Shown piece after piece: positions 44,729 to 63,622 of a stretch of 64,000 bases of DNA. This DNA comes from Amedibacterium intestinale (GTDB lineage: Bacteria; Bacillota_I; Bacilli_A; Erysipelotrichales; Erysipelotrichaceae). The notes beneath the pieces are model-generated. The model worked only from the letters and a program-made list of their open reading frames with translations. It was not told where the DNA came from and did no database searches. The position numbers and the translations under genes are program-made. The stretch is from assembly GCF_010537335.1 (NCBI RefSeq), contig NZ_AP019711.1:434001-498000 (forward strand), read 5' to 3'. Each line of letters starts with the position of its first letter. The stretch's first letter is position 1.

Positions 44729-45199
44729 ATGAAGTTTGCAGGTTTTTTTTGTGTTATAGCACTTATGGTTTTGTTTTATGCAAGAAATAATGCTATAGAC
44801 ATGACACAGTTTCAAACAGATACAAAAAAAGTAGAGATAAAGGGAGAAGTAAGATCTCCAGGAGTTTATGAAGTTGATTGGAATGCAACTGTGGCAGATG
44901 TTTTAAAAGAGGCAGGAGGAAGTTTAGAAAACGCAGATATATCTTCTATTAATTTAAGCAGAAATATAGAAAATGAAGCAGTTATTGTAGTAGATAAAAA
45001 ACAAGAAGAAAAGAAAATTTCCATAAACAGTGCCACCGTTGAAGAATTAGATGAATTGCCTGGTATAGGGCCTTCAATTGCTCAAAGAATTGTAGAATAT
45101 AGAAACCACCATTCTTTTCAAACGTTGGAAGATCTGAAAGAAGTAAAGGGTATCGGAGATAAGTTGTTTCAAAAAATAAAAGATAGGATTATGTTATGA
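44729..45199 (+). CDS. comEA: Competence protein ComEA
   Basis: DNA receptor for transformation. 156 residues: membrane anchor (3-17), SLBB domain (about 34-90, VEIKGEVRSPGVYEVDW), then the helix-hairpin-helix DNA-binding domain (INSATVEELDELPGIGPSIA). TAGGAGGG precedes the ATG. It overlaps comEC by four bases. Confidence 0.93.
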   Translation: MKFAGFFCVIALMVLFYARNNAIDMTQFQTDTKKVEIKGEVRSPGVYEVDWNATVADVLKEAGGSLENADISSINLSRNIENEAVIVVDKKQEEKKISINSATVEELDELPGIGPSIAQRIVEYRNHHSFQTLEDLKEVKGIGDKLFQKIKDRIML

Positions 45200-46908
45200 A
45201 GGGATGCTGGCTCTTCTATGCTTGTTTAAGCATTTTGCTTTTGTGGGGCGATACCCCCTTTTATCAAATTTGTATATTATTTCTTATTTTTTTGACTTTT
45301 CATAAAAAAATAAGAGGTTGCAAAAAAGGTATTGTTATTGTTTTGCTTTTATTATGTCGCTGTTATATTCCTATACCAAAAGATAAGCCTAATCCAGGTT
45401 ACTTTAAGATATTAGAAATCAAATCTAGTTATGTTGTAGCTTCAGATGGAAAGCATAAAGTTATTCTCTATGGGTTGGAGAATCCCAATTTTGATAATGT
45501 GTATCTTGTAAAAAAAGAATTTCGTGAAATTGATACGATTCATAATTTTTACGGTTTCTCCTTTGAAAACTGGTTAAAAAGAAAACATATCTTTTATGAA
45601 ACACAACTTGATAATTCAAAATTGGTAAAGCAGGGGAACTCTGTTCGACATATGATCTACGAAATGATTTCTAATCGAAGTGAAGAAGAAACAACATTTC
45701 TTAAAGCTATGTTGTTTGGTGTAAATAAAGAAGATGCTTCTTTTCTTTTGTTATCAAGTGGTATGCATATTGGTTTCTTATTGATGCTGGAAAGAAAATT
45801 CTTAAAAAGGTTTATGAAAGAAGAAACAGGACAACTATTAATATTGTTACAGCTGTTAGTTTTAGCTGCATGTTTTACATTAAGCAATTCTGTTCTTCGC
45901 TTATTGTGCTTTTATACAGCGAATTTGTTTTTATTCAAAGAAAATAGAAAAGATCAATTAGGGTTAGGTATGTTTTTTATTATGTTTCTTGCACCTTACA
46001 TGGTGTTTGAAATTTCCTTTATTCTTCCATGTATATTTCGCCTAGCTTATATGTTCAATGTGAAGAAGATGCCAAAATCATATGTAAGCATATCTGTACT
46101 GTTTCCTTTGCAACTATTCTATTATCATGAGGTAAATCCAATACAAATATTTTTATTTCGATTTTTAAGAATCGTATATGCTGTATTTTATTTTCTGGCA
46201 CTTCTTACTTTATTGCCGTTTGTGCCTTATTTTTCTATATATCAAGATATTTTAAATACATTGTCTTCTATAGAAAAAATCGGATTTACAATTTTTGGTA
46301 CCGCATCTATGTGGTGGATAGTTTTATGGTTTTATATTTTTTTACGCATTATTAGCTATAAAAAGAAAAAAGATTTGATAAGACAGGGATTTCTTTTGGC
46401 TTTCTTTTTTGCAATGCCGTATTTAAATCCCTTTGCACAAGTGTATATGCTTGATGTAGGACAAGGAGATTGCAGTGTTGTAATTCTTCCATATCGTTCA
46501 AAAGTCATTATGATAGATGTAATGGGACATTTAACAAAAAATATACCAGAAGATATTATCGTGCCTTTCCTTCATGCGAAAGGAATACGAAAGATTGATA
46601 CTTTAGTTGTAACGCATGATGATTTGGATCATAGTGGAGGTAAAAAACAATTAGAAAAATTAATATCTGTTGATAATGTCGTAAATGTAAAAGAAAAAGC
46701 CAAAATATATGAAGAGGATTGGATGAAATTTTTACTTCTTGATTATAAAGGAGAAGATGCAAATGAAAACAGTATTGTTACCTATATGCAGTTTTATGAT
46801 ACATCCATCTTATTTATGGGGGATTTAGGAATCAAAGGAGAAAAAGAATTACTAAAGCAATATCCTAAGTTACAAGCTGATATACTGAACCCTTCGATTT
46901 TAAATTGA
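45196..46908 (+). pseudogene. comEC: ComEC, DNA uptake channel, interrupted by an integrated element
   Basis: ComEC carries single-stranded DNA across the membrane in competence. N-terminal helices, a short OB-like region, the competence domain with helices, and the start of the metallo-beta-lactamase domain are present (MLDVGQGDCSVVILPY near 419; VVTHDDLDHSGG). At LQADIL the family continues with KxGHHGS; here it reads NPSILN and stops. The break is at about 46888, where an element with a serine recombinase begins. The gene is therefore 3'-truncated unless excision restores it. The N terminus is shorter than in B. subtilis ComEC. Confidence 0.9.
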
Positions 46909-46940
46909 TACGAGTTTGCACTATGGTATCAAAGCGTATC
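46905..46940. repeat. Inverted repeats next to the left attachment junction
   Basis: TTGATAC (46905-46911) and GTATCAA (46926-46932), and overlapping GATACG (46907-46912) and CGTATC (46935-46940). Placed 17 bases after the comEC break, they could be integrase arm sites of attL. Confidence 0.5.
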
Positions 46941-47035
46941 GGCAAATTAGTACAAAAAAACTTTGAGATTTTAATTTATAACTTGATTTTTCATCTTGAT
47001 AGAGCAAACATAGACAAAAATCGAGGTGAAAGAAA

Positions 47036-48442
47036 ATGTTAGAACAAATCATAAATATAATCCCAGCAAACAAAGTAGAAGAAAAAAATGAAAAGAAAGA
47101 AGTGCGTGTTGTAATCTATGTGAGAGTTTCCACGAGTAAAAAAGAGCAAGTTCGCTCATTCAATAATCAAATAGATTATTTCCGTAAAAAAATTGATAAA
47201 AGAGAAGATTGGAGACTAGTTAACATCTATGCTGATGAAGGAACGACCGGAACAAGCACGAAGAATCGTAGCCAATTTCTTCAAATGATAGAAGACGCAA
47301 AGAAAGGAGAGTTTGATTTAATCCTTACTAAATCAATTTCTAGGTTTGCAAGAAATACATTAGATACAATCAAATACACAAGGTTATTGAAATCTTTAAA
47401 TGTAGGAGTTTACTTTGAAAAAGACAATCTATGGACATTGTCAGGCGATGGAGAGTTTATTCTCACAGTAATAGCAGCTGTTGCTCAAGAAGAATCTCGT
47501 TCTATTTCAGAAAATACTAAATGGGGAATGAGAAGAAAAATGTCTAAAGGCATAGGATGTGTACCTTTCTCTAATTTTTGGGGATATGATCGTGGAGAAG
47601 ATGGAGGTTATCTAATTAATGAAAAACAAGCAGAAATTGTCAAAAGAATATACAACGATTTTTTGAATGGATACACATTAAAGGATATTACACTGCTATT
47701 GGAGAAAGATGATATTAAGACGGTTAAAGGAAAAGATAAATGGGGTACATCCACAATTTCATCTATTCTTCAGAATGAAAAATATAAAGGTGACTGTCTG
47801 TTGCAAAAGTATTATGTACTTGATCCGATTACTAAGAAATTGTTGAAAAATAATGGCGAAATCGATCAGATTTATGTGATAAATCATCATAAGGCAATAA
47901 TAGATAATGACACATGGGAAAAAGTACAGTTTAGATTAACCAAGGCTGCCAACAAAACTCATGCTAGTGCTTTACTAAAAAGGAATTTTTTTATGGGAAT
48001 GTTGTACTGTTCTATATGTGATAGAAGATGTTCAAAAATGATGTATACAAAAGTTGAACATTCAGGAACTAATTATGAAACTTGTAGTTATGTTAAAACT
48101 ACTTGTGAACAAAAGGGTACTTCGCTAAAAATAAAAGAAAAAATCCTGATTTTAATAATATATGATTCAATTTTAGAATATCACGGGATAAAGAAGGAAG
48201 AAACGAAATCTCGGAAACCAATATTCGAAAATAAATACATCCAAGTAAGAACAGAAGAGAAAATAGAGATATCTTTACTACTTATACATAGGTTGATAGA
48301 TAGGATTATTGTCTTACCCGATACAAAACTTCGGATAAATTATTATGATGGGAAGATAGATGTTGTAAATTATGCTGATTATGAATGTGACGAGAGGTTA
48401 AAACAGGCGAAAGATTTTATTTACACTCAAGATGAGATATAG
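47036..48442 (+). CDS. Large serine recombinase (site-specific integrase)
   Basis: Integrates and excises the element. 468 residues: resolvase domain with nucleophile Ser32 in YVRVST and SRFARNTLDTI; recombinase domain (NEKQAEIVKRIYNDFLNGYT and on); zinc-ribbon with CSICDRRC. The first 22 residues before VRVVIYVRVST are an extra leader. AGGTGAAAG precedes the ATG. Closest gene to the comEC junction, as is usual for the integrase of an element. Confidence 0.94.
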   Translation: MLEQIINIIPANKVEEKNEKKEVRVVIYVRVSTSKKEQVRSFNNQIDYFRKKIDKREDWRLVNIYADEGTTGTSTKNRSQFLQMIEDAKKGEFDLILTKSISRFARNTLDTIKYTRLLKSLNVGVYFEKDNLWTLSGDGEFILTVIAAVAQEESRSISENTKWGMRRKMSKGIGCVPFSNFWGYDRGEDGGYLINEKQAEIVKRIYNDFLNGYTLKDITLLLEKDDIKTVKGKDKWGTSTISSILQNEKYKGDCLLQKYYVLDPITKKLLKNNGEIDQIYVINHHKAIIDNDTWEKVQFRLTKAANKTHASALLKRNFFMGMLYCSICDRRCSKMMYTKVEHSGTNYETCSYVKTTCEQKGTSLKIKEKILILIIYDSILEYHGIKKEETKSRKPIFENKYIQVRTEEKIEISLLLIHRLIDRIIVLPDTKLRINYYDGKIDVVNYADYECDERLKQAKDFIYTQDEI

Positions 48443-50063: not shown

Positions 50064-50741
50064 ATGTTTGGAATGTCTAAAACATTGATTGTTGTATATA
50101 AAGATGAAATGGTTGTAAATCAACTTAAAAAGATGGTAGAAACTCACGATGATAAAGAAGAAGGTATAATTGGTACTCGTGATGACTCTGTTAATGTTGT
50201 TGCTTGGACTGAAAAGGTTTGGCTCAATAATAAGAAAGCAGGGAATATAACAGATAAAGTTTTGTTTTTGGGAGATATCAGTGGGACGGATAAGCTTATT
50301 CCTGTTCTTGATATTAAATTTAATCAGTTTGGTGTTCAATATGGATGGGCAGGGAATCAAGCAGTACTTTTTGTTGATTCTAAAGAAATGCATGATAAGG
50401 ATATCTATCTTGATTTTATTGAACAGCTATCAAAACTTTCTGTTCCTGACATGATTAAGGAACCTATTAATACAAGATATGCTAATGGAGAACAGGAATC
50501 TACTCCTAATGAAACAGAGGATGATGAAAATAAAAACTCTAGAAAGAAAATAAATAAATTCCTTGGTAATGCTAAAAACACCTTGGATAAAGGTGTAAAA
50601 GCTCTTGATAAGGTACGTGTGAATGTAGCGAGTAAAACTGAAGACTTGTTAAGAGATAAAAAGAAAGTTACAAGACAACAGTTGTTCTATGGAGTTGTTA
50701 ATTTATACAACAATGACTTAGATAATTTTATGAATGCGTAG
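50064..50741 (+). CDS. Unknown protein, 225 residues
   Basis: Not recognised. Residues 1-130 look globular with beta strands (TLIVVYKDEMV; KVLFLGDISGTDKLIPVLDI; AVLFVDSKEM). From about 140 it is acidic and Asn-rich, then Lys-rich helical (KKINKFLGNAKNTLDKGVKA). Ten bases before the 499-residue gene, with which it probably forms a pair. AGAGAGGG precedes the ATG. Confidence 0.7.
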   Translation: MFGMSKTLIVVYKDEMVVNQLKKMVETHDDKEEGIIGTRDDSVNVVAWTEKVWLNNKKAGNITDKVLFLGDISGTDKLIPVLDIKFNQFGVQYGWAGNQAVLFVDSKEMHDKDIYLDFIEQLSKLSVPDMIKEPINTRYANGEQESTPNETEDDENKNSRKKINKFLGNAKNTLDKGVKALDKVRVNVASKTEDLLRDKKKVTRQQLFYGVVNLYNNDLDNFMNA

Positions 50742-50751
50742 GTGACTTGAA

Positions 50752-52251
50752 ATGACTAATTTAGAGGAAGTCAAATATGGTTGGAATTTTATGGCTGATT
50801 TACTTGGAGCAGATGCGGGAAGTAAAATAGCTTTTTCTGATTATGTTCAAAATACTCTTCAGAATGAATCTATTGCAAAACAAAATATCAGAATACAAGA
50901 AATAAACGCAGCAATTGATCAACTTGCTGATAGTATTAATAATCATCCAAGTCTTAATTTGGATTCAGAACAACTAAAAGGGTTTATTGCAGAAGAATGG
51001 CACGCTGGAACTTTTAATATAGATGCTATTAGAAAAGGATCAGAGCATAGAGCAAGGACACTTCAAGAAACTGGATATGGCAGTGTTGATATTGATACCA
51101 ATTTTGGTAAGCAATATAGCCTTAAATATGCTAATGTTGCAAAAGATGCAGAGAATTATCAAGCTGTTTTAAATAGAGATACAGGTGCTCCTAAATATGA
51201 AGGGCAAGAAAGATTAATAGCTGCAGAGCAGGTGGATGATGCTAAAGCTTGGGCACATCGCAGAGGATTGAAAGATATTGAAAACAGACCTGATGTTTCT
51301 CATTCTCATCTAGATACTGAGGAACATCTTGTTGGTAAGATTTCTGATAGAGAAGGTATAGAATCTAAAGAGTTATCCATTAAGGAATCAAAACAAATTG
51401 CTAAAGAAGCAAAAACGGATGGGTTTAATCCAGAAGAACATGGTTATACAAAAAATTCACTTTTGGATAAAGTAAGAATTGATTATGTGAATAGAGCAAT
51501 GAAGGCAGGTTTAACTGCTGCAACTATTACGGCAATTACACAGCTTGTTCCAGAATTATATAAAACAATTGATTATTTGATTAAGCACGGAGAGATTGAT
51601 TTAGATGCGTTAAAGAAATCAGGAAAGAAAGTTATATCTACAAGTGGAGAGGCTTTCTTGCGTGGATCTATTGCATATGGAGTAGAACTAGCACTACAGA
51701 ATGGTTTTCTTGGCGAGAGTATGAGAACAGTTAACCCATCTGTTGTAGGTGTTGCTGTTGCAGTAATCATGGGTACTGTTAAGGATAGCATCATGGTTGC
51801 AGCAGGTAATATGACAGCTAAACAAATGGGAATGAGATTTGTTGATTCTGTTGTGGTTTCATCTGGATATTTGGCGAGTATGAAGATTGGTGGAACTATT
51901 GCTCAAGCATTATGTCCAGAGCTTCCAGTTGTTGGATATGCAATAGGGAGTTTGCTTGGATGTTCTGTAGCCGTAGTTTATAACATAGGGAAAAATAAAT
52001 TAATTTCTTTTTGTATTGATACTGGATTTACTTGTTTTGGTCTTGTTGACCAAAACTATGAACTACCAGAAGAAGTATTAAAAGATATGGGAATTGATAT
52101 TGCTCCAATTTCAAGAGTAGATGTAAGAAGAACTAATATTAGTACAGCTTCTACTCAAGAGTTAGTTAATCGTTCTAAATATGAAACGATTGATATAAAA
52201 GTACTTAAACGTGGGGTTATCGGTATTAATAAAATAGGTTATGTCTATTAA
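50752..52251 (+). CDS. Unknown protein with hydrophobic C-terminal half, 499 residues
   Basis: Not recognised. Residues 80-115 hold a conserved-looking polar block (FIAEEWHAGTFNIDAIRKGS and HRARTLQETGYGSVDI), which could be an enzyme or binding core. Residues 252-275, 328-352 and 364-413 are Ala/Gly/Val-rich hydrophobic segments (VVGVAVAVIMGTVKDSIMVA) like membrane-inserting helices. A membrane-acting effector is possible but inferred only from composition. Confidence 0.7.
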   Translation: MTNLEEVKYGWNFMADLLGADAGSKIAFSDYVQNTLQNESIAKQNIRIQEINAAIDQLADSINNHPSLNLDSEQLKGFIAEEWHAGTFNIDAIRKGSEHRARTLQETGYGSVDIDTNFGKQYSLKYANVAKDAENYQAVLNRDTGAPKYEGQERLIAAEQVDDAKAWAHRRGLKDIENRPDVSHSHLDTEEHLVGKISDREGIESKELSIKESKQIAKEAKTDGFNPEEHGYTKNSLLDKVRIDYVNRAMKAGLTAATITAITQLVPELYKTIDYLIKHGEIDLDALKKSGKKVISTSGEAFLRGSIAYGVELALQNGFLGESMRTVNPSVVGVAVAVIMGTVKDSIMVAAGNMTAKQMGMRFVDSVVVSSGYLASMKIGGTIAQALCPELPVVGYAIGSLLGCSVAVVYNIGKNKLISFCIDTGFTCFGLVDQNYELPEEVLKDMGIDIAPISRVDVRRTNISTASTQELVNRSKYETIDIKVLKRGVIGINKIGYVY

Positions 52252-52447: not shown

Positions 52448-53461
52448 ATGAAAATACATTATTTTCAAAGATACCATGAGAAGGAGAATGTGGCTACAGC
52501 AAATACAATGCTATTATTATCACGCCTTTACTCTTACTCATCGGACAAGTTTTTTAGATTTTTAAAGTCAGAGTATTTTTCTGATTCTTTTGATCCAGAA
52601 ATTATATTCACTCTTCAAGAGAAGAGTGTTGATAGTATTCCAGATGCAACAATTACTCAGGAGAGTTTTAAAATTGTGGTTGAAACAAAAATGTCAGATT
52701 GGTTTTATGAAGATCAGCTCCTTCGTCATTTAAACTCATTCAATGATGAAAAGTATAAGGTTATGATTACCCTTGCTCCAGAACTGATGGAAAAGAAAAA
52801 GAAAGTAGCTTTTGAGGAGAAACTTATAGAGTATAACAAAACTCAAAATCATCCAATTATTCATATAAATACAACTTTTGAAGAAATGGCTAATGCGATA
52901 AGCGATGTTCTTGATGATAGAGATTATGAAATCAATGACGTTTTAGATGATTACTTGAACTATTGTTATACCGATGGTTTGATTCCTGTATCAGATGCAT
53001 GGAAGTATATGAGAATGCAGCTAGCTGGAACAACTTTGGATTTCAATATTAGCGAAAACGTTTATTATGACAATGCTGAGCGTGGATTTAGAGCTCATGA
53101 TATACTTGGACTCTATAAAAATAAAAGTGTTCGAGCAATTGGTAAGGTTATTGCTAAAATTACTGCTGTTGAAACAGAAAATGGTATAAAATTTGACACT
53201 GAATTAGGAGAACTTACAGATGAGAGAAAAGCCACTATCGAGAGAGCGATGGCTGATGGTGATTCTCATGGTTATGATCTTAGAACAGTTAAACATCGAT
53301 ATTTCTTTGTTGAAAGATTCTATGAGACAGATTTCAAAAAAGTTACCCCAAGAGCACCGTGGGGGACAAGAATCTTTGATTTAACACAGGTTCTTGGAAC
53401 AGAGGATATTCCGGATACTGAAGAATTAGCACAAGTATTGATGACAAAGAGTTGGACTTAA
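52448..53461 (+). CDS. Probable PD-(D/E)XK-fold nuclease, 337 residues
   Basis: Residues about 62-80 read DSIPDATITQESFKIVVETK, a good PD-...-ExK core. N terminus MKIHYFQRYHEKENVATANT is followed by helical segments; the C-terminal half is unrecognised. Position within the cargo, between the unknown pair and the restriction genes, suggests phage defence. AGGAGG lies seven bases before the ATG. Activity is not shown. Confidence 0.65.
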   Translation: MKIHYFQRYHEKENVATANTMLLLSRLYSYSSDKFFRFLKSEYFSDSFDPEIIFTLQEKSVDSIPDATITQESFKIVVETKMSDWFYEDQLLRHLNSFNDEKYKVMITLAPELMEKKKKVAFEEKLIEYNKTQNHPIIHINTTFEEMANAISDVLDDRDYEINDVLDDYLNYCYTDGLIPVSDAWKYMRMQLAGTTLDFNISENVYYDNAERGFRAHDILGLYKNKSVRAIGKVIAKITAVETENGIKFDTELGELTDERKATIERAMADGDSHGYDLRTVKHRYFFVERFYETDFKKVTPRAPWGTRIFDLTQVLGTEDIPDTEELAQVLMTKSWT

Positions 53462-53909: not shown

Positions 53910-55226
53910 ATGGCTTATGCAATTGATTTATTCTGCGGAGCAGGAGGTTGTTCCGAAGGATTGATTCAAGCCGGATTTCATATATTATTTAGTTCAGATA
54001 TCAGTGATATGGTTGAAGTGACATACAAGCATAGACATGAGCAGCTTGGGTTGATTCAAGGAAAAAACACATGGTTTGAAAGAGCGGATATTAGAAATCT
54101 TACAGGCAATATAATTAAAAAGAGTATTTCATCTCTTGAAATATTTAATGAGCGTGAAATACCGGAAATAGATTTAATGATTGGCGGTCCTAGCTGCCAA
54201 GGATTTTCAAGAGCTGGTAGGCGAGATAAATCCGACCCTCGTAATATGCTTTTTGGTGAATATGTAAGAGTGATAAGTGAAGTAAGGCCTAAATATATTG
54301 TACTTGAAAATGTTGAAGGTTTTGTTGATATGCAGTTCTTGGGATATAAAGGAATTACTGGTATCGAATATCCAGATGGAAGTGTAACCCCTGACATTCT
54401 GAGAAGCGAACTACATGAGATAGGTTATGATACCTTAGAGCCGCGAATATTAAATGCGGCTGATTATGGTGTTCCACAAAGAAGAAATAGAATAATTTTT
54501 ATAGGTTATAAGAGCGGATTAACTCCACCTGAATACCCTAAACCGACTGTTACTCCTGACAATTATCTTACTCTACTTGATGCAATTGGAGACTTGATTG
54601 TTGATGATAGTGTGAGACAGAAAGTGTGTCCTAAAAAGACTCCTTATCAATTAGCAAGTATCAAAGGAAGAACACCAACTATTTCAGGGACACCGATTTC
54701 TTGCGAACAAGAGATGAATATGGAACTATCAAAGCAAACAGCGGTTGTTGGAGAAAGATTCGGATTATTCAAGCAAGGCGAAAGTGGATCTAACCTTAAA
54801 AAACGTGTAATAGAAGAAGGTATAGATATTTCTGACAAGCCTGCTTTGATTGAACTGTGCAGTGAAAAATTCAAAATGAAGTCCGAGGACGTTGTGGCTC
54901 TTTTTAAGGATGCAAAGGCAACAAAAGAACAAGTTGAGGTGTTATTAACAAAGAAAAATATAAGACAACGATTCGCCTCTAATCAACCATCTTCAACGGT
55001 GGTCACCATTGCTGATGACTATATTAGTCCATGGGAAGATAGAACATTTAGCGTTCGTGAAATGGCTAGATGTCAGTCATTTGATGATTCGTTTGAATTT
55101 TTAGGCAAAAGAACCACAGGTGGACTAAGAAGAAGAGTTGAAGTTCCACAGTACACTCAGGTAGGAAATGCAGTTCCTCCACTATTAGCAAAAGCAATAG
55201 CGGAGGAAATCTTAAAGGTTTTATAA
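53910..55226 (+). CDS. DNA (cytosine-5) methyltransferase
   Basis: Protecting half of a type II restriction-modification system. 438 residues. Motif I IDLFCGAGGCSEG, motif IV GGPSCQGFS with Cys96, motif VI LENVEG (Glu133), motif VIII QRRNRIIFIGY and motif X GNAVPP (about 420). The residue before the catalytic Cys is Ser rather than the usual Pro. The variable target-recognition region lies between motifs VIII and IX. It ends convergently with the nuclease gene, overlapping by six bases. Confidence 0.94.
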   Translation: MAYAIDLFCGAGGCSEGLIQAGFHILFSSDISDMVEVTYKHRHEQLGLIQGKNTWFERADIRNLTGNIIKKSISSLEIFNEREIPEIDLMIGGPSCQGFSRAGRRDKSDPRNMLFGEYVRVISEVRPKYIVLENVEGFVDMQFLGYKGITGIEYPDGSVTPDILRSELHEIGYDTLEPRILNAADYGVPQRRNRIIFIGYKSGLTPPEYPKPTVTPDNYLTLLDAIGDLIVDDSVRQKVCPKKTPYQLASIKGRTPTISGTPISCEQEMNMELSKQTAVVGERFGLFKQGESGSNLKKRVIEEGIDISDKPALIELCSEKFKMKSEDVVALFKDAKATKEQVEVLLTKKNIRQRFASNQPSSTVVTIADDYISPWEDRTFSVREMARCQSFDDSFEFLGKRTTGGLRRRVEVPQYTQVGNAVPPLLAKAIAEEILKVL

Positions 55227-56183
55227 TAAATTAAAATAGCTATATGTTGTACCTAAATCGGGCAAAGCAGTGCGAATTGTAGATATGATTCCATTGGTAT
55301 GCCCGGTTTTTAAATTGCGTTCAACTAATTCCTTTATAGAACTTGCAACACCAGCAGAGGATGGTAAACCCCAATAGTTGCCCCCAGAGAGATTAATAAC
55401 TCTCAAAACCGCTGTTGAAGTATTTTTGTATTGTTGACGTCCATTTTTTACAAGTTGATTTGAAGGAACGGTAACAAAAGAATATGTAAATCTTTTGGCA
55501 TCGTGAATTGAATAACCATCAGTGCCAACAGAGATTCCATTTCTAAAAGTATTAGCTGAGTATACAGCATCCCAAAGCATAGGGATTTGTGCGTTATCAT
55601 TCCAATTTGTTTTACATTGAATAATATGAATTTCAATATCATCGAAGTCTCTAGAAACTAATGCATTTAAAATTGGTAGGAATTGATATGTTCTTCCGGA
55701 GTATGTTGCCACGGGATTACCATTGACATCATTAATGTTGATGTTATCTTTATCCATGTTGTATTCAATTTTATCAGGAAAGGTAATTGCAATTAAATCA
55801 GATTCGGTATTAGATCTGAAATTACCATAATTTACGGTGATGGCCTTATTTATAGGCTCGGGTATTAATTCTCGATTATGTTTAATAACAAATGTTCTTC
55901 TCCCAATTAAACAAAGATTTAAATACCAGCAAACTAAAGCTTCCCAATTTGCTCCGCCTCCAGCAACATCACTCTGGCTTCTTCCTGCTTGACCAGTAGT
56001 TTTGAAAATATCTCTTAAGTTGTCTCCAATGGAATAAATTTGATGTTCGGTTGGAGTAGATGAATTGAAAATATCGGTGTTAATTTTCGCTTTCCAAGTA
56101 TTCCAAACTGATGAAAAACCGTTGGTCTCAAAAAGCTTGCTTACGGATAGTTCTCTGGCATATTCTATAATATTTTGACTCAT
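55221..56183 (-). CDS. Type II restriction endonuclease (predicted)
   Basis: 320 residues. Likely cognate of the adjacent methyltransferase by position. A PD-(D/E)XK-like centre can be read as Asp128 in TESDLIAITFP and IHIIQCKTNW with Gln187-x-Lys189, i.e. a QxK variant. GGGANWEALVCWYLNLC is a striking conserved-looking block. The recognition site is not predictable. It follows the controller-like gene by 18 bases on the minus strand. Confidence 0.8.
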   Translation of the reverse strand: MSQNIIEYARELSVSKLFETNGFSSVWNTWKAKINTDIFNSSTPTEHQIYSIGDNLRDIFKTTGQAGRSQSDVAGGGANWEALVCWYLNLCLIGRRTFVIKHNRELIPEPINKAITVNYGNFRSNTESDLIAITFPDKIEYNMDKDNININDVNGNPVATYSGRTYQFLPILNALVSRDFDDIEIHIIQCKTNWNDNAQIPMLWDAVYSANTFRNGISVGTDGYSIHDAKRFTYSFVTVPSNQLVKNGRQQYKNTSTAVLRVINLSGGNYWGLPSSAGVASSIKELVERNLKTGHTNGIISTIRTALPDLGTTYSYFNLL

Positions 56184-56201
56184 TTGAAATTCCTCCTTAG
56201 T

Positions 56202-56405
56202 TTAATCCTTTATAGTTTCCATGATGTCTTCTAATTTACAATCCATTGCTTTACAGATTTTAAGAAGAACATCAGTGGTGATGTTTGCTCCTTTTCCTAA
56301 TTTGGCAATGGATGCTGCACTTATACCAGAAGCATCTTTAAGATCATTTTTATTCATTCCTTTATCTATTAACATTTTCCATAATTTGTTATAACTGATT
56401 CGCAT
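56202..56405 (-). CDS. XRE-family HTH protein, probable restriction controller
   Basis: 67 residues, Cro/C1-type HTH (KWKMLIDKGMNKNDL is not exact; the clear part is LKDASGISAASIAKLGKGAN) and VLLKICKAMDCKLEDIME. Its size and position directly before the nuclease gene match C proteins that delay nuclease expression. No C-box was confirmed. AGGAGGTAGA precedes the ATG. Confidence 0.8.
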   Translation of the reverse strand: MRISYNKLWKMLIDKGMNKNDLKDASGISAASIAKLGKGANITTDVLLKICKAMDCKLEDIMETIKD

Positions 56406-56421
56406 AATCTACCTCCTCGTT

Positions 56422-59223
56422 TCAAAAAATAAAATCACTGAAATCATATTGTTGTTCATCTGTAAGATAATTTTTTAAAAGTTCTACATCTTTACTAATA
56501 TCACGTGGCTTGATTCTGTTGATTACCTTTTCTTCAACCTCTGGAGTCCAGTAGATTTTCAATTTTTCTCTGGCTCTTGTGATAGCAGTGTAGAAGATAT
56601 TGTGTGTTACAAGTTCTTCAACCTCGTCTGTAATAACTATCTTTACAGAGTCATATTCCAGTCCTTGTGCTTTATGAATGGATACTGCGTAAGCAATCTG
56701 GAATGGAACAACATTGTATGAACTTCTATCATCTCCATCTTCATCAGCACTCTTTAATTTGTGTACATAAAATCTGACTACTGATTTATTTTCATCTTCC
56801 GAACATTCAAGTAGCTGGAGATCGATGAATCTAATATCACTTTCATCTATTACCTTTGGTATCTCAACATCAAACTGAATGCGTTCATCATGAGTTCCTA
56901 GGTCTAGAATTTCTATTCCCTTGATAAGTCCTTTCATATTGTTGTGTATGACGGGATGGAATCTGTCCGAATCTAAGAAGAGAATTGGATCTCCAACTTT
57001 ATACTGCTGAACATCCCATTGAACAGCGAGGTTAGGATTGCTTTCTTGTAGAAACCTATTGATATTGTTAATTCCATATAAGCCATCATAATTTAGACAG
57101 AGGATAGCCTCGCCTGGTTCAAGCGAAGAGAGTAGGGTTTCATCTACTTTTAAGGAGTAACTTTCTCTCTCAATGACCTCTTTCGCTGTGTCATCCATCT
57201 TTCTAACCTTATCCCATAGTTCAAGCAATCGTTCGTTTTTTGTTCGATGAGGCTGGGTCAGTTCAAATACAGCACTTTCTGGCAAGAATGATTTTAGTAC
57301 CGAGAACCAATTTCCGAATTGAATTGCGTCAATTTGATAAGTATCTCCAACCAATAAAAGCATCTCAAAGTTTGCTTTTTGCAACACCTTTACCATATCT
57401 TTATTGCTAACTGTACTACATTCATCAATAACTAATAATTCATATTTTTCACTAGAATTCTGATTTAAGAAACTGGCAATTGTAGAGAAGCTTGCATTAT
57501 CAGCATCAATCTTTCTCATCAAGTTCTCTTTCGCAGGATTTGTTTGCGTTAGATACAATTTTGCTTCATCATTTAAGTAATGAGAAACATGGTTTATAAG
57601 CGTAGATTTCCCTACACCTGCGGAGCCATATATTACACCAACTTTTGATTCTGAAAATATACGAGTGATGATGTCTCTTTTTTCAATACAATCAATTTCG
57701 TAATCATCAAATAATAGCCAAAATTCAACATCTGTACTGTAATTCTCAATACCTGACTCTGCCAACCCCTGTAATTTTTCAATCACCTTGCAAGTATCAA
57801 GTTTGTAATCGTTTATAAATACTTGGTTATGTTCAAGCATTAAATCACTTGCAGGTCTGTGACCTGAGTAAAGGCTACTGTTATACTTTTCGATGAGACT
57901 TGGATAATCAGGAAAATAAATCAATTCATCAACATCAGTGAAAAGCTGACCTTTGCCTTCCGTGTTATTTCTTATAAATCTTGCGAATAATTCCGGACGT
58001 TTATCCTTACAAGGAATACATTCGAAAACAGCTCCTAATTTTGGATTATGACCAACAGGAGATCTGTTGAATGGTAAAGAATCAAATTGCCTGCAACCAT
58101 TTGACAAATACAAACCAGAAAGCTGACTGTTTCCGGCAGTTATCCACTCTTCATAATATTTTCTATAGTAGCCAGAGGAATATTGGCTTTTAATTATAAC
58201 GTTGTTCATGTTATAAAGAAGGTATCGCAACATATTTTGTCCTTTACGACCTTCTCGTATAAGCTTTCTACATTCATCTAAAATTGGAATAAACACCATG
58301 GACTTAAGGTTGTTTTTCCATTGGAGAGTAGTTTTATCATATGCCTCGTCCGGGAAGTCCATTAGAGCAGTCAAAGTGTATTTTGTTTTAGTGAGGAACT
58401 CACAGATTAATCGTTGCTCTGGATAAGGTACTCTTATTTTCTTGCCTTTTATCAGTGAAATGAAATTTTGAAATTCACAGTCACGGATGGAAACTTCCCA
58501 GCCATCTATAATGATGATAGGCATTGTTTTTCCTAATATCTCGATAGTCTCATATATAAGATGAAACTTTGATGCGTAATTGCTTTTGATTGGAAGTTTG
58601 GTAAAAGCAATTACTCTGTTAGATTTGGATTTGTTTTTCCTATCGTCTATAGGTGTGAATGTGACTTCATAATATATTTTTCTATTTACAAACAGCGGTT
58701 TGATTTTCTGAATATAGTATTTATCTTTACTGTCGGTATGTAATTCCACAGGATGCCGTTCTATTATTTCAGAAATCTTTTTGTAGTATTCCTGCAAGGT
58801 ATCATCCAGATGCAGAGGAAACTTATCTATGTTATGTAATACTTCGATACCATAGTAGTGTCTGAGAAGATTCTTTGCTTCTAATAAGTATTGGTAATAC
58901 TTAAGCATTAATCGTTCAGAGCCATCTTCATCTAGAGTGTATTGCGTGGTGACAATTTCTAGGTAATTATGAAATTTGTATAAAGTGTACAAGTCGCTGT
59001 TTATCTGCGCAAACTCAGTGGCTTTTGCTATGTTTTCGGCAGTTATAGATATTTCTCTGCCATCGGCATAAAACTTGAGCATGACGTGGTTCACGAACTT
59101 CGTCAGTTGCTCTAAAATATCTTGAGAAATAGCACCACGAGAATTATTTTCTATTTCATCTAAATGCCTACATATTACATTATCTATCTTTTTGATAGAC
59201 TCATCGATTGTTGGCATTAACAT
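56422..59223 (-). CDS. Large SF1 helicase with unknown N-terminal half, 933 residues
   Basis: Residues about 530-930 form an SF1 (RecD/Dda-like) motor: Walker A YGSAGVGKSTLI (about 531-539), motif II LLVIDECST (about 598), motif III VGDTYQIDAI, AYAVSIHKAQGLEYDSV (about 845) and the UvrD_C-type TAITRARE (about 882). The first 520 residues are not recognised. It sits 16 bases before the controller gene and 15 after the 318-residue gene, so all four minus genes form one operon ending in the nuclease. Confidence 0.88.
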   Translation of the reverse strand: MLMPTIDESIKKIDNVICRHLDEIENNSRGAISQDILEQLTKFVNHVMLKFYADGREISITAENIAKATEFAQINSDLYTLYKFHNYLEIVTTQYTLDEDGSERLMLKYYQYLLEAKNLLRHYYGIEVLHNIDKFPLHLDDTLQEYYKKISEIIERHPVELHTDSKDKYYIQKIKPLFVNRKIYYEVTFTPIDDRKNKSKSNRVIAFTKLPIKSNYASKFHLIYETIEILGKTMPIIIIDGWEVSIRDCEFQNFISLIKGKKIRVPYPEQRLICEFLTKTKYTLTALMDFPDEAYDKTTLQWKNNLKSMVFIPILDECRKLIREGRKGQNMLRYLLYNMNNVIIKSQYSSGYYRKYYEEWITAGNSQLSGLYLSNGCRQFDSLPFNRSPVGHNPKLGAVFECIPCKDKRPELFARFIRNNTEGKGQLFTDVDELIYFPDYPSLIEKYNSSLYSGHRPASDLMLEHNQVFINDYKLDTCKVIEKLQGLAESGIENYSTDVEFWLLFDDYEIDCIEKRDIITRIFSESKVGVIYGSAGVGKSTLINHVSHYLNDEAKLYLTQTNPAKENLMRKIDADNASFSTIASFLNQNSSEKYELLVIDECSTVSNKDMVKVLQKANFEMLLLVGDTYQIDAIQFGNWFSVLKSFLPESAVFELTQPHRTKNERLLELWDKVRKMDDTAKEVIERESYSLKVDETLLSSLEPGEAILCLNYDGLYGINNINRFLQESNPNLAVQWDVQQYKVGDPILFLDSDRFHPVIHNNMKGLIKGIEILDLGTHDERIQFDVEIPKVIDESDIRFIDLQLLECSEDENKSVVRFYVHKLKSADEDGDDRSSYNVVPFQIAYAVSIHKAQGLEYDSVKIVITDEVEELVTHNIFYTAITRAREKLKIYWTPEVEEKVINRIKPRDISKDVELLKNYLTDEQQYDFSDFIF

Positions 59224-59238
59224 TCCTCCTTTCGTTTA

Positions 59239-60195
59239 TTAGTATTCTCCGTCATCCCAGTCATCGATAAAGGCATCGTAGGGAAATGAGCATGCAAATT
59301 GATCTGGATGAAGCTTTACATACAAATTGCGTATTTTGGTTCTGGCATTTCCTAAAAAAGGAGTGACGGAGCCATCGAATAAAAAGCTGTTACTTATATT
59401 GTTTAGTTCTCCAAGTAAACCAAAAACATATGACTTTAAGGTTGGATCAGCAAACACATCTGCTTTTGACATCCACTTAGTTTCATACAAGTCTTTTATT
59501 TTACAAGGCAGAGTCATATCGATTAATGATACAGCATAGTTTTCTCCGATGAGAGCAGCCATGATTTCGTCATAATCTGCTGTGAACTCTTCAAGCAGTA
59601 AATTGTCTTCGGCAGAATAGGGGGATTCGTCTGCCTGTTCTTCAGGAAGCTGAACACTTGTTGCTCCGGTAATGCTGCTTTTATTTAATCCATCTACCAG
59701 GTTGCTTACTGCGTTTCCCCACGCATCGGCTACTGCCTGTCCAGAAGCCAAGATCTTTTCAGTAAGAATATCATGTGATGTTTTATCACTGTCTTTTTTA
59801 GCACTCTTAGGAGTGCTTTTTCGTTTTTGTGCGGCAGCCATTGTAAGAATCTCTTCAAAATAATATGCAATTTTTTCTGAAGCATTATATAGATCAATGT
59901 CATTTATGTAAGGATGAAAAGCATCGCACAGCCTTTGAGTTGTTGCTTCAGAAAAATTATCTAAGTATACAATGAATTGTGCAGGTTCAATATAGGGCAA
60001 AATACGTTTGGAAAACCTAGTAATTGTTGTTTTCCCGTTAAAATAAGCTTTAAAAGTGCTTTCGCTTATATCTTCAATTTGTAATAAACCCTCTTCGATA
60101 ATGATGGATTCAAACAGTGTTTTTGTAAAAACGTGAGTGCTGTATGAACCACCGATGATGGGTTTTATTTTTTGTGCAAATTCTGTGAATTCCAT
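59239..60195 (-). CDS. Unknown protein paired with the helicase, 318 residues
   Basis: Not recognised. N-terminal region GGSYSTHVFTKTLFESIIIE and SESTFKAYFNGKTTITRFSK could include a HTH-like element; a Lys/Ser-rich linker (AAAQKRKSTPKSAKKDSDK) is followed by an acidic helical C terminus ending DDWDDGEY. First gene of the helicase operon, so probably the helicase partner or sensor. Confidence 0.75.
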   Translation of the reverse strand: MEFTEFAQKIKPIIGGSYSTHVFTKTLFESIIIEEGLLQIEDISESTFKAYFNGKTTITRFSKRILPYIEPAQFIVYLDNFSEATTQRLCDAFHPYINDIDLYNASEKIAYYFEEILTMAAAQKRKSTPKSAKKDSDKTSHDILTEKILASGQAVADAWGNAVSNLVDGLNKSSITGATSVQLPEEQADESPYSAEDNLLLEEFTADYDEIMAALIGENYAVSLIDMTLPCKIKDLYETKWMSKADVFADPTLKSYVFGLLGELNNISNSFLFDGSVTPFLGNARTKIRNLYVKLHPDQFACSFPYDAFIDDWDDGEY

Positions 60196-60454
60196 AATCC
60201 ACCTCTTTCTGTGTTTTTATTTACACTCAAGCCTACCCAAGCCTACCCATCGCTACCAAGTTCTATCCATTTAATTATCTATAATGGGTATTGTAAAAAG
60301 CAAACAGCAAGTGTTTGTAATTAGTAATTCTTTATTTAGATATAGGCTTAACCTAAATTATATCAGATAAATACAGTGGAATCTATACTTTACAGAGCAC
60401 AAAGATGCGTTCGCAGACACAAATTATACAAACACTTCATTTTTAGTCTTATTC
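60196..60454. other. Intergenic region between divergent operons
   Basis: Holds the promoters of the minus helicase operon and of the plus phage operon. A direct repeat AAGCCTACCCA occurs twice at about 60231-60250. No supportable gene. Confidence 0.5.
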
Positions 60455-60714: not shown

Positions 60715-61332
60715 ATGAAAATTAGAAAGACAAATTACAAGAAAAGAGATACTTACACTTACACATTTACAAGTGCTGATGGTAAAGAAGAAAGAATCGT
60801 TATTCGACCTGGAGAGAACGGAGTTACCGAGGCTGATATCAAAATGCTACATGCTCTGGATGATAGTGAGGTCTATTACAACAACAAAAACTTAAGGCCT
60901 GAAAGAACCTCAGAAGAAAAAGCAGAAATCAAAGAATGGATCACAAAATTTGTTGAGGAAGAAACAGCTAAGAATGGCTATGCTCCAACAAAGGACGAAA
61001 TCAATTGTGCTGTTAATGAGAGATTTCCGAGAAATTACAACCTTTCCCTTGAATATGACTTTAGTACAGATGGGGCAGATTCTGATTTTGATAAGAGCCG
61101 TCTTTTATATCAGTTGGCAATGAGTCAAAACTGTGTTGTCAATGATAATACAGAAAGAGTCCGTGAACTTATTGAAGAACTTACTGAAAAGCAAAGAGTA
61201 GTTCTTAAACTTACAGAATTTGATGGATGGAGCTTAACTGATGTTTCAAAGCAGATTGGAATCAGTGTTAAGAATGTCAAAAAACATCGTGACAATGCCA
61301 TGAAATATATCAAAGAAAACTTTTCTAAATAA
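60715..61332 (+). CDS. Sigma-like regulator with region-4-type HTH
   Basis: 205 residues. C-terminal ~70 residues match sigma-70 region 4 (LTEKQRVVLKLTEFDGWSLT, then VSKQIGISVKNVKKHRDNAM). The N-terminal half lacks a clear region 2, so a core sigma role is unlikely; such proteins often regulate phage genes. It heads the replication module and has a highly structured leader. Confidence 0.75.
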   Translation: MKIRKTNYKKRDTYTYTFTSADGKEERIVIRPGENGVTEADIKMLHALDDSEVYYNNKNLRPERTSEEKAEIKEWITKFVEEETAKNGYAPTKDEINCAVNERFPRNYNLSLEYDFSTDGADSDFDKSRLLYQLAMSQNCVVNDNTERVRELIEELTEKQRVVLKLTEFDGWSLTDVSKQIGISVKNVKKHRDNAMKYIKENFSK

Positions 61333-61418
61333 TTTTTATAGAAAGGGTAAAAATTGATCTATTATCTTTGCCTGTTATTCGTAAGGAACAACACCTTACA
61401 GAAAGTGAGGTAAGGAAA

Positions 61419-61622
61419 ATGGCAATGAAACACAAAATCACAATCAATGTTTCAGACCCAAACGGAAAGAAAGCCAAAGTCCTACGAGCGGCAGATATGC
61501 GTTTACCCTCAAGAATTGCACGATTCTTATTTGGTGACTTTACACAAGTGTATTTGCTTGCTCCGGGACAGACGGTTGAGTCCGTTGATGTCAAAGAACT
61601 AAAGGAAGGAGGAAATATCTGA
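61419..61622 (+). CDS. Small phage protein, 67 residues, unknown
   Basis: MAMKHKITINVSDPNGKKAK then a basic-hydrophobic core ending DVKELKEGGNI. ATG at 61419 follows GAGGTAAGG; the earlier in-frame TTG at 61368 has no ribosome site. It overlaps the next gene at TGATG. Confidence 0.65.
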   Translation: MAMKHKITINVSDPNGKKAKVLRAADMRLPSRIARFLFGDFTQVYLLAPGQTVESVDVKELKEGGNI

Positions 61623-61912
61623 TGAGTAAATCAAGTGAGTTAGCATCACAGGTTAAACAGTTAAAACAATGTGGCAAAATGCTTATTGGTATTGCAGATA
61701 GTCTTTCACAGCTATTTTCTTCAGATGAAGAAAAACAAACAACAAAAAAGGATTTTACATTTGAAGAAGTGCGAGGAGTTCTTGCTGCTAAATCAAGAGA
61801 AGGTCATACAGCTGAAATTAAAGCAATTCTTACCGAATTTGGTGTAGAAAAACTTTCAGATGTGGATCCATTAAAGTATGAAGAACTCTTGCAAAAAGTG
61901 GAGGTGATGTAA
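61622..61912 (+). CDS. Small phage protein (Rrp5-like label in prophages), 96 residues
   Basis: N-terminal helix SSELASQVKQLKQCGKMLIG, then a SAP/ligase-adjacent-like motif DFTFEEVRGVLAAKSREGHT and on. Similar proteins are common before DUF2800 in Firmicute prophages. Coupled to both neighbours (overlap and zero-gap). Confidence 0.7.
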   Translation: MSKSSELASQVKQLKQCGKMLIGIADSLSQLFSSDEEKQTTKKDFTFEEVRGVLAAKSREGHTAEIKAILTEFGVEKLSDVDPLKYEELLQKVEVM

Positions 61913-63043
61913 ATGGCAGCACATGCATTATTGTCTGCATCATCTAGCCACCGTTGGATTAACTGTCCGCCATCAGCAAAACTTAATGCAGAGGCAGAAA
62001 AAGTAAATTGTGAAACAAATAGTGAATATGCAAAGCAAGGTACTGAAGCCCATGCTCTTTGCGAATACAAATTAAAGATTGCAATTGGTATGGAAAGCAC
62101 TGACCCTACAGAGAACCTTAGTTTCTATGACGAAGAAATGGAACGATGTGCAGAAGAGTACAAAAACTTTTGCTTATCTGTAAATCAAGAAACACAGAAA
62201 ACTTGTAAAGACCCAGTTATTCTTATTGAAGAGAAACTTGATTTTTCAAATTATGTTCCTAACGGATTTGGAACTGGCGACTGCGTAATTATTGGAGATG
62301 GAACTCTTCATGTAATTGATTATAAGCATGGTCAAGGTGTAGAAGTATTAGCTGACCATAACCCTCAAATGATGTGTTACGCATTAGGTGCATTGAATTT
62401 GTACGATGGAATTTATGACATTGATAATGTTTCAATGACTATCTTCCAACCAAGAAGAGAAAACATCAGTACATTCGTTATGAAAAAAGATAATCTCTAC
62501 ACTTGGGCAGATACAGTTCTAGTACCAAGAGCAAAATTAGCCTTTGATGGCGAAGGTGAATTTATGGCAGGAGATCATTGTAGATTTTGTAAGGTCAAAG
62601 CAACTTGTAGGAAACGCATGGAACAAAACATGGAACTTGCAAAGTATGATTTTGAGATGCCTGTAACATTAGAAGATGCCGAGATTTCAATTGTTCTTTC
62701 AAAAGTAGATGAACTTGTGTCATGGGCAACTGATGTTAAAGAGTATGCACTTCAAAGGGCAATGAGTGGTGTTCACTATGACGGATTTAAAGTAGTTGAA
62801 GGTCGCAGTGTTCGCAAGTATACCGATGAAGATAAAGTGGCAGAAACTGTAACGAGTATAGGAAAAGACCCATATGAGAAGAAGTTACTAGGAATAACAG
62901 CTATGACTACACTTCTTGGTAAGAAGAAATTTAATGAATTACTAGGTGATTTGGTTTACAAGCCAGAAGGCAAACCAACACTTGTTCCGGAAAGTGATAA
63001 ACGTCCGGAAATCAAAACAGCAAAAGAAGATTTTAATGACTAA
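61913..63043 (+). CDS. DUF2800 phage protein (PD-(D/E)XK, RecB/Cas4-like)
   Basis: 376 residues. Starts AAHALLSASSSHRWINCPPS, the DUF2800 signature. Nuclease core at about 120-145: GTGDCVIIGDGTLHVIDYKHG (Asp and DYK). A Cys cluster HCRFCKVKATC may bind Fe-S. Probably a recombination or replication nuclease. It precedes DUF2815 by 15 bases. Confidence 0.88.
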   Translation: MAAHALLSASSSHRWINCPPSAKLNAEAEKVNCETNSEYAKQGTEAHALCEYKLKIAIGMESTDPTENLSFYDEEMERCAEEYKNFCLSVNQETQKTCKDPVILIEEKLDFSNYVPNGFGTGDCVIIGDGTLHVIDYKHGQGVEVLADHNPQMMCYALGALNLYDGIYDIDNVSMTIFQPRRENISTFVMKKDNLYTWADTVLVPRAKLAFDGEGEFMAGDHCRFCKVKATCRKRMEQNMELAKYDFEMPVTLEDAEISIVLSKVDELVSWATDVKEYALQRAMSGVHYDGFKVVEGRSVRKYTDEDKVAETVTSIGKDPYEKKLLGITAMTTLLGKKKFNELLGDLVYKPEGKPTLVPESDKRPEIKTAKEDFND

Positions 63044-63058
63044 TAGGAGGAAAAGAAT

Positions 63059-63622
63059 ATGTCAAAATTTAATAACCCAATGAAAGTAATTACAGGACCT
63101 AACACAAGATGGAGCTATGCAAATGTCTGGGAGCCAAAATCAATCAATGGTGGTGCTCCAAAGTATAGTGTCAGCCTTATCATTCCAAAATCAGATAAGA
63201 CAACAGTGGATAAAATCAATGCTGCAATTAAGGCAGCTTATGAAGAAGGTCAATCAAAACTTAAAGGCAATGGTAGAAGTGTTCCTGCACTTTCTGCAAT
63301 TAAGACTCCTCTTCGTGACGGAGACCTTGAAAGACCAGACGATGAAGCATATGCAAATAGCTATTTCATCAATGCTAACTCTCCATCAGCACCTGGCATT
63401 GTAGATGTTGATAGAAATACAATCATTGACCGCAGTGAAGTCTATAGTGGTGTTTATGGACGTGCATCAATCAGCCTTTACGCATTTAATTCTAACGGGA
63501 ATAAAGGTATTGCTTGTGGTCTTAATAACTTACAAAAGATTAGAGATGGAGAACCACTTGGTGGTAAATCACGTGCTGAGGATGATTTTGCGACAGACGT
63601 AGATGATGATTTCTTATCTTAA
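63059..63622 (+). CDS. DUF2815 phage protein (putative ssDNA-binding)
   Basis: 187 residues; MKVITGPNTRWSYANVWEPK and SLIIPKSDKTTVDKINAAI are typical. The DxDDDFLS acidic tail resembles SSB tails. Expected partner of DUF2800 and the polymerase. AGGAGG precedes the ATG. Confidence 0.88.
   Translation: MSKFNNPMKVITGPNTRWSYANVWEPKSINGGAPKYSVSLIIPKSDKTTVDKINAAIKAAYEEGQSKLKGNGRSVPALSAIKTPLRDGDLERPDDEAYANSYFINANSPSAPGIVDVDRNTIIDRSEVYSGVYGRASISLYAFNSNGNKGIACGLNNLQKIRDGEPLGGKSRAEDDFATDVDDDFLS

What the first reader, a model, noticed from the sequence alone, without database searches (positions are those of the whole stretch)
55221..60195. Restriction nuclease in one operon with a large SF1 helicase, a HTH controller and an unknown 318-residue protein
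Seen: four minus-strand genes spaced 15, 16 and 18 bases apart (unknown 318 aa, 933-aa helicase with unrecognised first 520 residues, 67-aa HTH, predicted nuclease), convergent with a C5 methyltransferase. Ordinary type II systems need only methyltransferase, nuclease and a C protein. Known helicase-bearing defence systems (type I/III RM, DISARM, BREX) do not, as far as I can tell, have this layout. Inference: either a composite defence system or an RM set co-transcribed with an independent two-gene system.
Basis: partly seen in the sequence, partly recalled or inferred. Interest (0 to 1): 0.75.

Follow-up and report, generated by a model that had tools for sequence, protein, structure and literature searches.

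The report
Prophage helicase defence module beside RM
A virus sleeping in a gut-type bacterium carries a conserved three-gene cassette (a helicase, an unknown partner protein and a small switch) in a slot where its sister viruses carry known anti-virus systems, almost always next to a restriction enzyme set that is swapped from virus to virus, so it is probably an untested second line of defence.

Summary
The four minus-strand genes are real, but they are two units. The nuclease and C5 methyltransferase are a mobile type II RM pair that also occurs alone. The 318-aa protein (P318), the helicase (HEL) and the 67-aa HTH form a conserved cassette in temperate Bacillota phages, divergent from the phage replication operon; the window copy lies in a prophage inserted in comEC. 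Behind the HTH sits a different RM system in almost every phage (Eco47II, AlwI, SacI, LlaJI, MmeI and other types): 41 of 47 loci have a methyltransferase downstream, 1 of 46 upstream. In sister phages the slot before the same HTH holds Lamassu, another ABC-3C system, an AAA_13 system or a NACHT protein. P318 shares its N-terminal domain with those Lamassu LmuA proteins but has its own C-domain, found only with HEL. HEL is PADLOC's untested candidate PDC-S53; distant relatives lie beside type I, III and IV RM and Gabija genes. Phased 10-bp repeats precede the N-domain gene in 38 of 39 loci and vary with that domain. Best reading: P318-HEL is an uncharacterised Lamassu-like two-gene anti-phage module in a two-slot prophage defence locus. 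The architecture is shown; the function is inferred.

The parts
59239..60195 (-). P318: 318-aa all-helical partner protein; N-domain (1-122), disordered linker (126-186), C-domain (199-318)
   Evidence: ORF; LmuA PDLC03857 match over residues 1-142, 53.8 bits; alignments; AF2 mean pLDDT 72.6, about 93 in the N-domain
59830..60195 (-). P318 N-domain (residues 1-122), shared with Lamassu LmuA and other first proteins of the slot
   Evidence: profile searches; pairwise
59242..59601 (-). P318 C-domain (about residues 199-318), found only with HEL
56422..59223 (-). HEL: 933-aa SF1 helicase, PDC-S53 / phrog_325 family
58489..58734 (-). OB-fold-like barrel in the HEL N-terminal half (residues 164-245); tentative
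   Evidence: AF2 pLDDT 85, pTM 0.81; SSB 5odn Z 7.0, rmsd 3.1, 78 aligned; MCM OB domains Z 6-6.8
56548..57675 (-). SF1 helicase core of HEL (residues 517-892), motifs intact
56202..56405 (-). 67-aa Cro/C1-type HTH, constant junction between the defence slot and the RM slot
   Evidence: HTH_26 70 bits; survey; alignment
60233..60267 (-). Direct repeats (GGTAG-type, 10-bp spacing) just upstream of P318
60277..60283 (-). -10-like TATAGAT just upstream of the repeats
   Evidence: sequence, conserved in the alignment; by eye
55221..56183 (-). Type II restriction nuclease (predicted PD-(D/E)XK: E81, D129, QCK191)
53910..55226 (+). C5 DNA methyltransferase, convergent partner of the nuclease
   Evidence: DNA_methylase 196.7 bits
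47036..48442 (+). Large serine integrase at the prophage end, next to the interrupted comEC
   Evidence: Resolvase and Recombinase
60715..63622 (+). Start of the divergent phage early operon (sigma-factor-like, exonuclease, SSB-like)
   Evidence: syntenic with Terrisporobacter phage TPDSL_ph1 and loci L021-L024

Best explanation
P318-HEL-HTH is an anti-phage cassette of a family of temperate Bacillota phages. It occupies the first slot of a two-slot defence locus that the prophage carries for its lysogen. Slot 1 (before the HTH) takes one NTPase-based defence machine: Lamassu, another ABC-3C system, an AAA_13 system, a NACHT protein or, here, P318-HEL. Slot 2 (after the HTH) takes one RM set. 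Proposed mechanism: the P318 N-domain (the domain found in LmuA proteins) binds the phased 10-bp repeats over the transcription start and holds the operon low; the P318 C-domain docks on HEL, as the LmuA C-domain is thought to dock on LmuC-LmuB; HEL, an SF1 motor with an SSB-like OB barrel, engages abnormal DNA (ends, ssDNA or replication intermediates of an invading phage, possibly ends made by the restriction enzyme) and switches P318 into a response that stops the infection. Shown: cassette, two-slot architecture, shared N-domain, swapped RM, and the association of repeats with the N-domain. Inferred: defence function, docking, trigger, output and that the N-domain itself binds the repeats.
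For: P318-HEL-HTH order in about 28 contigs; all 13 viral contigs with P318 also carry HEL; of 395 genomes of the class, both that have P318 also have HEL. RM swapping: Eco47II, AlwI, SacI, LlaJI, MmeI, HNH, NlaIII/ICEA-like, GmrSD; 41 of 47 loci with a methyltransferase downstream against 1 of 46 upstream. Machine swapping before the same HTH (60-96% identical in most): Lamassu LmuA/LmuC/LmuB, CTD11 + DUF2326, AAA_13/PDC-S06, NACHT-SNaCT14. Shared N-domain: profile without bridging sequences; 61% identity between a HEL-type P318 and a LmuA; 45% over 202 aa between window P318 and an AAA_13-type protein. A relative of the nuclease follows an AAA_13 gene in L095. Distant HEL genes lie beside type I, III, IV RM and GajB. 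Repeats: 38 of 39 N-domain loci against 1 of 13 without a detected N-domain; repeat sequence tracks N-domain more than HTH (partial Mantel 0.63 against 0.36).
Against: No experiment is known to me for P318, HEL or PDC-S53. P318 has no recognisable catalytic domain and no PDB fold match, so the output is unknown. Its C-domain does not align with the LmuA CTD6 protein. The repeats lie next to the N-domain gene, so physical linkage could explain part of the covariation. HEL relatives of 56% identity or less lack P318, so HEL can act without it. Phages are redundant and related, so locus counts are not independent.
Confidence: 0.6

Rival explanations
1. P318 and HEL are accessories of the restriction system itself: HEL processes restriction breaks or limits self-damage, and the HTH is an ordinary C protein that delays the nuclease.
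For: REase follows the HTH by 18 nt; RM follows in 41 of 47 loci; distant cassettes carry a C-protein-like HTH in the same place (L068, L071); distant HEL lies beside HsdM in 3 of 14 genomes.
Against: The same nuclease-methyltransferase pair occurs without the cassette (L096); the RM types behind it are unrelated; the same place holds whole Lamassu or NACHT systems; HEL stands alone on plasmids.
Confidence: 0.17
2. The cassette is a phage housekeeping or lysogeny module: HEL is a Dda-like replication helicase and P318 or HTH is the lysogeny repressor acting on the divergent early operon.
For: Position divergent from the early operon; phrog_325 is named Dda-like helicase; conserved palindromes in the divergent region in some loci.
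Against: Sister phages with the same early operon lack HEL and carry other machines there; HEL relatives sit in plasmids and defence islands across phyla; HEL is transcribed away from the replication genes.
Confidence: 0.12
3. The locus is only a hotspot: defence genes accumulate side by side with no functional link between slot 1 and slot 2, and the HTH is merely a recombination anchor.
For: Hotspots of unrelated defence systems in prophages are known (PMC9122126); both slots turn over independently.
Against: Order, orientation, short spacing and the HTH at the junction are kept through machine swaps; the repeats persist while diverging in sequence.
Confidence: 0.11

Closest known systems
PADLOC candidate PDC-S53 (single-gene phage defence candidate)
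   Same: HEL matches over its full length, 1219 bits
   Different: The candidate lists the helicase alone; here it is paired with P318 and an HTH, neither of which is in the model
Lamassu / ABC-3C (LmuA-LmuC-LmuB)
   Same: P318 N-domain is that of LmuA PDLC03857; same phage slot, same downstream HTH, gene for the N-domain protein first
   Different: No LmuC, no SMC-like LmuB; P318 C-domain is not CTD6; the ATPase is an SF1 helicase
Prophage defence hotspots of P2 phages, P4 satellites and a Bacillus prophage (PMC9122126)
   Same: Variable defence genes between conserved phage genes, RM among them
   Different: Here two ordered slots with a constant HTH between them and an N-domain/repeat leader in front
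C-protein-controlled type II RM
   Same: Small HTH just upstream of the nuclease; convergent methyltransferase
   Different: HTH is conserved with the upstream cassette, not with a given RM; repeats are not classical C-boxes and lie in front of P318
Gabija (GajAB) and Kiwa (KwaAB)
   Same: GajB is also a UvrD/SF1 helicase; weak KwaB-like match at HEL 66-187 (21.2 bits, cut-off 26.3)
   Different: No GajA or KwaA; both matches are below a reliable level

Membership tests
Lamassu / ABC-3C | LmuA-type N-domain in the first protein | tested here: met
   PDLC03857 residues 1-142, 53.8 bits; profile and pairwise matches
Lamassu / ABC-3C | ABC-3C C-terminal domain (CTD) on the first protein | tested here: not met
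   no Pfam CTD in P318; hhalign of the C-domain with a CTD6 protein, probability 0.1
Lamassu / ABC-3C | SMC/ABC-type ATPase LmuB | tested here: not met
   the NTPase is an SF1 helicase; no LmuB in the operon
Lamassu / ABC-3C | middle component LmuC | tested here: not met
   no gene between P318 and HEL, 15-nt gap; LmuC is lacking in some Lamassu systems (PMC10586767)
PDC-S53 | full-length match to the helicase model | tested here: met
   residues 3-921 of 933, 1219 bits
PDC-S53 | protects against phages | not testable with these tools
   needs a plaque assay; no paper in the library names PDC-S53
Type II restriction-modification (nuclease + methyltransferase) | DNA methyltransferase | tested here: met
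   PF00145 196.7 bits
Type II restriction-modification (nuclease + methyltransferase) | cognate nuclease linked to the methyltransferase in other genomes | tested here: met
   L096: 63% nuclease and 60% methyltransferase, convergent; L097: degraded nuclease copy, also convergent, with a Vsr-like gene by eye
Type II restriction-modification (nuclease + methyltransferase) | cleavage and recognition site | not testable with these tools
   no family match for the nuclease
C protein (RM controller) | small Cro/C1-type HTH next to the nuclease | tested here: met
   PF13443 70.4 bits; 18-nt gap
C protein (RM controller) | controls its own and the nuclease promoter through operators in front of its gene | tested here: inconclusive
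   no promoter or operator shown before the HTH; the repeats are nearly 4 kb away before P318 and fit the N-domain better
Type I / type III RM, DISARM, BREX | their subunits beside the helicase | tested here: not met
   no HsdS/M/R, Mod/Res, DrmA-B or BREX gene in the operon
Gabija | GajA partner and full-length GajB match | tested here: not met
   best GajB match 26.7 bits over short stretches only; no GajA in the operon
Kiwa | KwaB match above cut-off and KwaA partner | tested here: not met
   21.2 bits against a cut-off of 26.3; not among the 25 families that most of 17 HEL homologues match

The most novel reading that the evidence does not exclude
A phage lineage keeps a two-slot immune locus in which an interchangeable NTPase 'guard' (Lamassu, AAA_13, NACHT or P318-helicase) is wired by one constant regulator to an interchangeable restriction system, the guard acting as a second line that responds to DNA damaged or left by restriction; the LmuA-type N-domain is a DNA-binding autoregulator with its own co-evolving 10-bp repeats rather than a toxic effector.
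Probability: 0.3. Interest if true: 0.85.

Novelty: new variant of a known kind. Interest (0 to 1): 0.7.

Why it matters
It turns an anonymous helicase candidate (PDC-S53) into a defined, testable two-gene system with a partner protein, and links it to Lamassu through a shared domain. The fixed HTH junction gives a strong anchor for finding new defence systems: whatever lies just before it is likely a defence machine, and whatever lies just after it is likely an RM set, including many nucleases with no family match. If the N-domain binds the repeats, it would give one class of LmuA proteins a function different from the effector role assumed for LmuA N-domains.

Tried and rejected
1) Sequence search of P318 and the nuclease against PDB: nothing useful. 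2) Fold search of P318 and HEL 1-520: no significant match; only an OB-barrel-like region in HEL, Z about 7, within the range of common arrangements; helical bundles of P318 matched unrelated bundles. Absence of a match does not show a new fold. 3) KwaB-like N-terminus of HEL: weak, below cut-off, not general in the family. 4) P318 C-domain as a hidden ABC-3C CTD: not supported. 5) The HTH as binder of the repeats: my first idea; weakened because repeats are absent from 12 of 13 loci that carry the HTH without a detected N-domain, and L068/L071 keep repeats with a different HTH. 6) A conserved AGTTGA palindrome as a general operator: present in some P318-HEL loci only. 7) Papers on PDC-S53 or on this locus: none in the held library; the main ABC-3C classification paper is not held, so I could not check whether it already notes RM-linked ABC-3C operons. 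8) Nuclease homologues on plasmids or in 116 genomes of the family: none apart from the window's own copy.

Full report
What is there. The methyltransferase is a C5 enzyme (PF00145, 196.7 bits). The helicase core (residues 517-892) is SF1, RecD/Dda-like, with intact motifs conserved in homologues from several phyla. The full protein matches PADLOC's phage defence candidate PDC-S53 (1219 bits) and phrog_325 (511 bits) end to end, so residues 1-520 belong to the family. AlphaFold gives a confident model of 1-520 (pLDDT 85, pTM 0.81): a helical bundle, an OB-barrel-like region at 164-245 (SSB 5odn Z 7.0, rmsd 3.1 over 78 residues), then a helical part. That match is modest and only suggests ssDNA contact. 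P318 is all-helical, with an N-domain, a disordered linker of variable length and a C-domain. PADLOC links residues 1-142 to LmuA.

The setting is a prophage. The window has comEA and a comEC gene broken off at 46908, a large serine integrase at 47036-48442, the four genes, and, divergent from P318, a phage early operon (sigma-factor-like protein, exonuclease, SSB) that is syntenic with Terrisporobacter phage TPDSL_ph1.

P318, HEL and HTH travel together. Close relatives of HEL (57-91% identity) carry P318 directly upstream, and where the contig allows it an HTH downstream. Every viral contig with P318 also has HEL. In the class, 12 of 395 genomes have the helicase family and 2 have P318, both with HEL. 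Helicase relatives of 56% identity or less lack P318 and stand in plasmids or islands, often beside type I (L028, L029, L033, L062, L063, L065), type III (L060), type IV (L066) restriction genes or GajB (L030, L061).

The RM set is exchangeable. Behind the HTH I found Eco47II-type (L016, L043), AlwI (L048), SacI (L071), LlaJI (L056), MmeI-type (L055), ICEA/NlaIII-like (L023), HNH (L025) and GmrSD (L045) genes and several nucleases with no family. The window's own nuclease and methyltransferase occur as a convergent pair without the cassette in L096 (63% and 60% identity), and a related nuclease (81%) follows an AAA_13 gene in L095. E81, D129 and QCK191 are invariant among the nucleases.

The helicase cassette is exchangeable too. 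The P318 N-domain profile led to loci of the same order where the first protein is a LmuA with CTD6 or CTD11, followed by a middle component, an SMC-like ATPase and a close relative of the same 67-aa HTH. A survey of 48 viral contigs with this HTH shows, before it: P318-HEL; Lamassu; CTD11 with DUF2326; an N-domain protein (or, in some, another first protein) with a 215-aa protein and an AAA_13 ATPase (PDC-S06); or a NACHT-SNaCT14 protein. After it there is usually an RM set, among them FokI (L109, L141, L143) and HATPase-Z1 sets. With one set of criteria, 41 of 47 loci have a methyltransferase within 6 kb downstream of the HTH and 1 of 46 upstream. The contigs are related and a few are the same phage seen twice, so these counts describe the locus and are not independent trials.

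Domain logic. A profile of the P318 N-domain built without bridging sequences finds the AAA_13-linked proteins (E about 1e-45), CTD11 proteins (1e-25 to 1e-6) and CTD6 LmuA proteins (about 1e-6). A HEL-linked P318 (L067) is 61% identical in this domain to the LmuA of L107, and the window's P318 is 45% identical over 202 residues to the AAA_13-linked protein of L130. The P318 C-domain was found only with HEL and does not align with the CTD6 protein tested. By analogy with LmuA, whose C-terminal domain is thought to dock to its partners (PMC10586767), I infer that the P318 C-domain docks to HEL.

Repeats. Just upstream of P318, after a TATAGAT, lie four GGTAG-type repeats at 10-bp spacing, in all P318-HEL loci of this subtype and once per locus. 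Other lineages have 10-bp repeats of other sequence in the same place: GATAG, GGATA, CGGACA, CGGAAG, TCGGA, TGGTTCATCA. A periodicity test is positive in 38 of 39 loci with the N-domain and 1 of 13 without a detected N-domain, although those also carry the HTH. The exception, L155, has a diverged CTD11 protein. Repeat sequence follows N-domain identity more closely than HTH identity (partial Mantel 0.63 against 0.36; between different machines 0.67 against 0.29). The simplest reading is that the N-domain binds the repeats and autoregulates. Physical linkage of repeats and N-domain gene is the main caveat.

How it probably works. The lysogen expresses the operon at a level set by the N-domain on the repeats. 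RM cuts unmethylated incoming DNA. HEL, an SF1 motor, engages DNA ends or replication intermediates of an invader, and through the P318 C-domain triggers a response whose nature is unknown. Lamassu in the same slot is thought to sense aberrant DNA ends or hairpins and to kill the infected cell (PMC10586767), which makes an abortive response the best guess. The functional steps are inference.

What is known. Prophage hotspots of defence genes are known (PMC9122126), as are Lamassu and RM on phages. I found no paper in the held library on PDC-S53 or this locus. It is not a Lamassu (three defining features not met), not Gabija, Kiwa, DISARM, BREX, type I or type III RM. I rate it a new variant of a known kind: an uncharacterised Lamassu-like, helicase-based module in an ordered two-slot prophage defence locus.

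Noticed in passing
window 45196-48442: The prophage interrupts comEC near its 3' end, with a large serine integrase directly after it. Related phages (L021, L022, L024) also lie beside comEC-like genes, others beside an rlmD/RumA-like gene (L016, L019, L025, L043).
   Followed up: partly
L016:11500-12147, L025:11500-12171, L043:10471-11118, L049:12031-12678, L071:10104-10754: A HhH-GPD DNA glycosylase (about 215 aa) sits between the HTH and the nuclease in loci with C5 methyltransferases, as a possible repair partner for deaminated 5-methylcytosine (compare Mig.MthI, from memory).
   Followed up: no
L015, L016, L019, L025, L040, L041 (about 154 aa right after the HTH): A conserved NUDIX hydrolase gene follows the HTH in many loci; no obvious reason for it in an RM operon.
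   Followed up: no
L017:6609-7988, L025:6609-7985, L056:5592-6986: P318 of about 459-464 aa; in L017 and L025 (aligned here) it carries a second, diverged copy of the C-domain.
   Followed up: no
window 52448-53461: 337-aa protein without family match; by eye it has a PD...ETK stretch (PDATITQESFKIVVETK) typical of PD-(D/E)XK nucleases; possibly one more defence gene.
   Followed up: no
window 50064-52251: Two adjacent genes (225 and 499 aa) without any family match, between the integrase and the RM genes.
   Followed up: no
L048:15756-15995 and L117:12777-13004: A second HTH of the same family heads the methyltransferase operon on the opposite strand.
   Followed up: no
L021, L025, L049 (62-66 aa, before the methyltransferase): A conserved small protein (LIYLDTYxLQxDMRIRxPKS...) precedes the methyltransferase genes; not an obvious HTH.
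   Followed up: no
L108:10356-14562 and L134, L138, L139: RM slot filled by a HSP90/MutL-like ATPase plus Z1-domain protein (weak Z1 matches in L134, L138, L139), the MORC-type restriction sets.
   Followed up: no
G399, G459, G016, G419, G400 (mycoplasma-like genomes): PDC-S53 helicases also occur in genomes of the class that appear to read TGA as Trp, several of them decayed.
   Followed up: no
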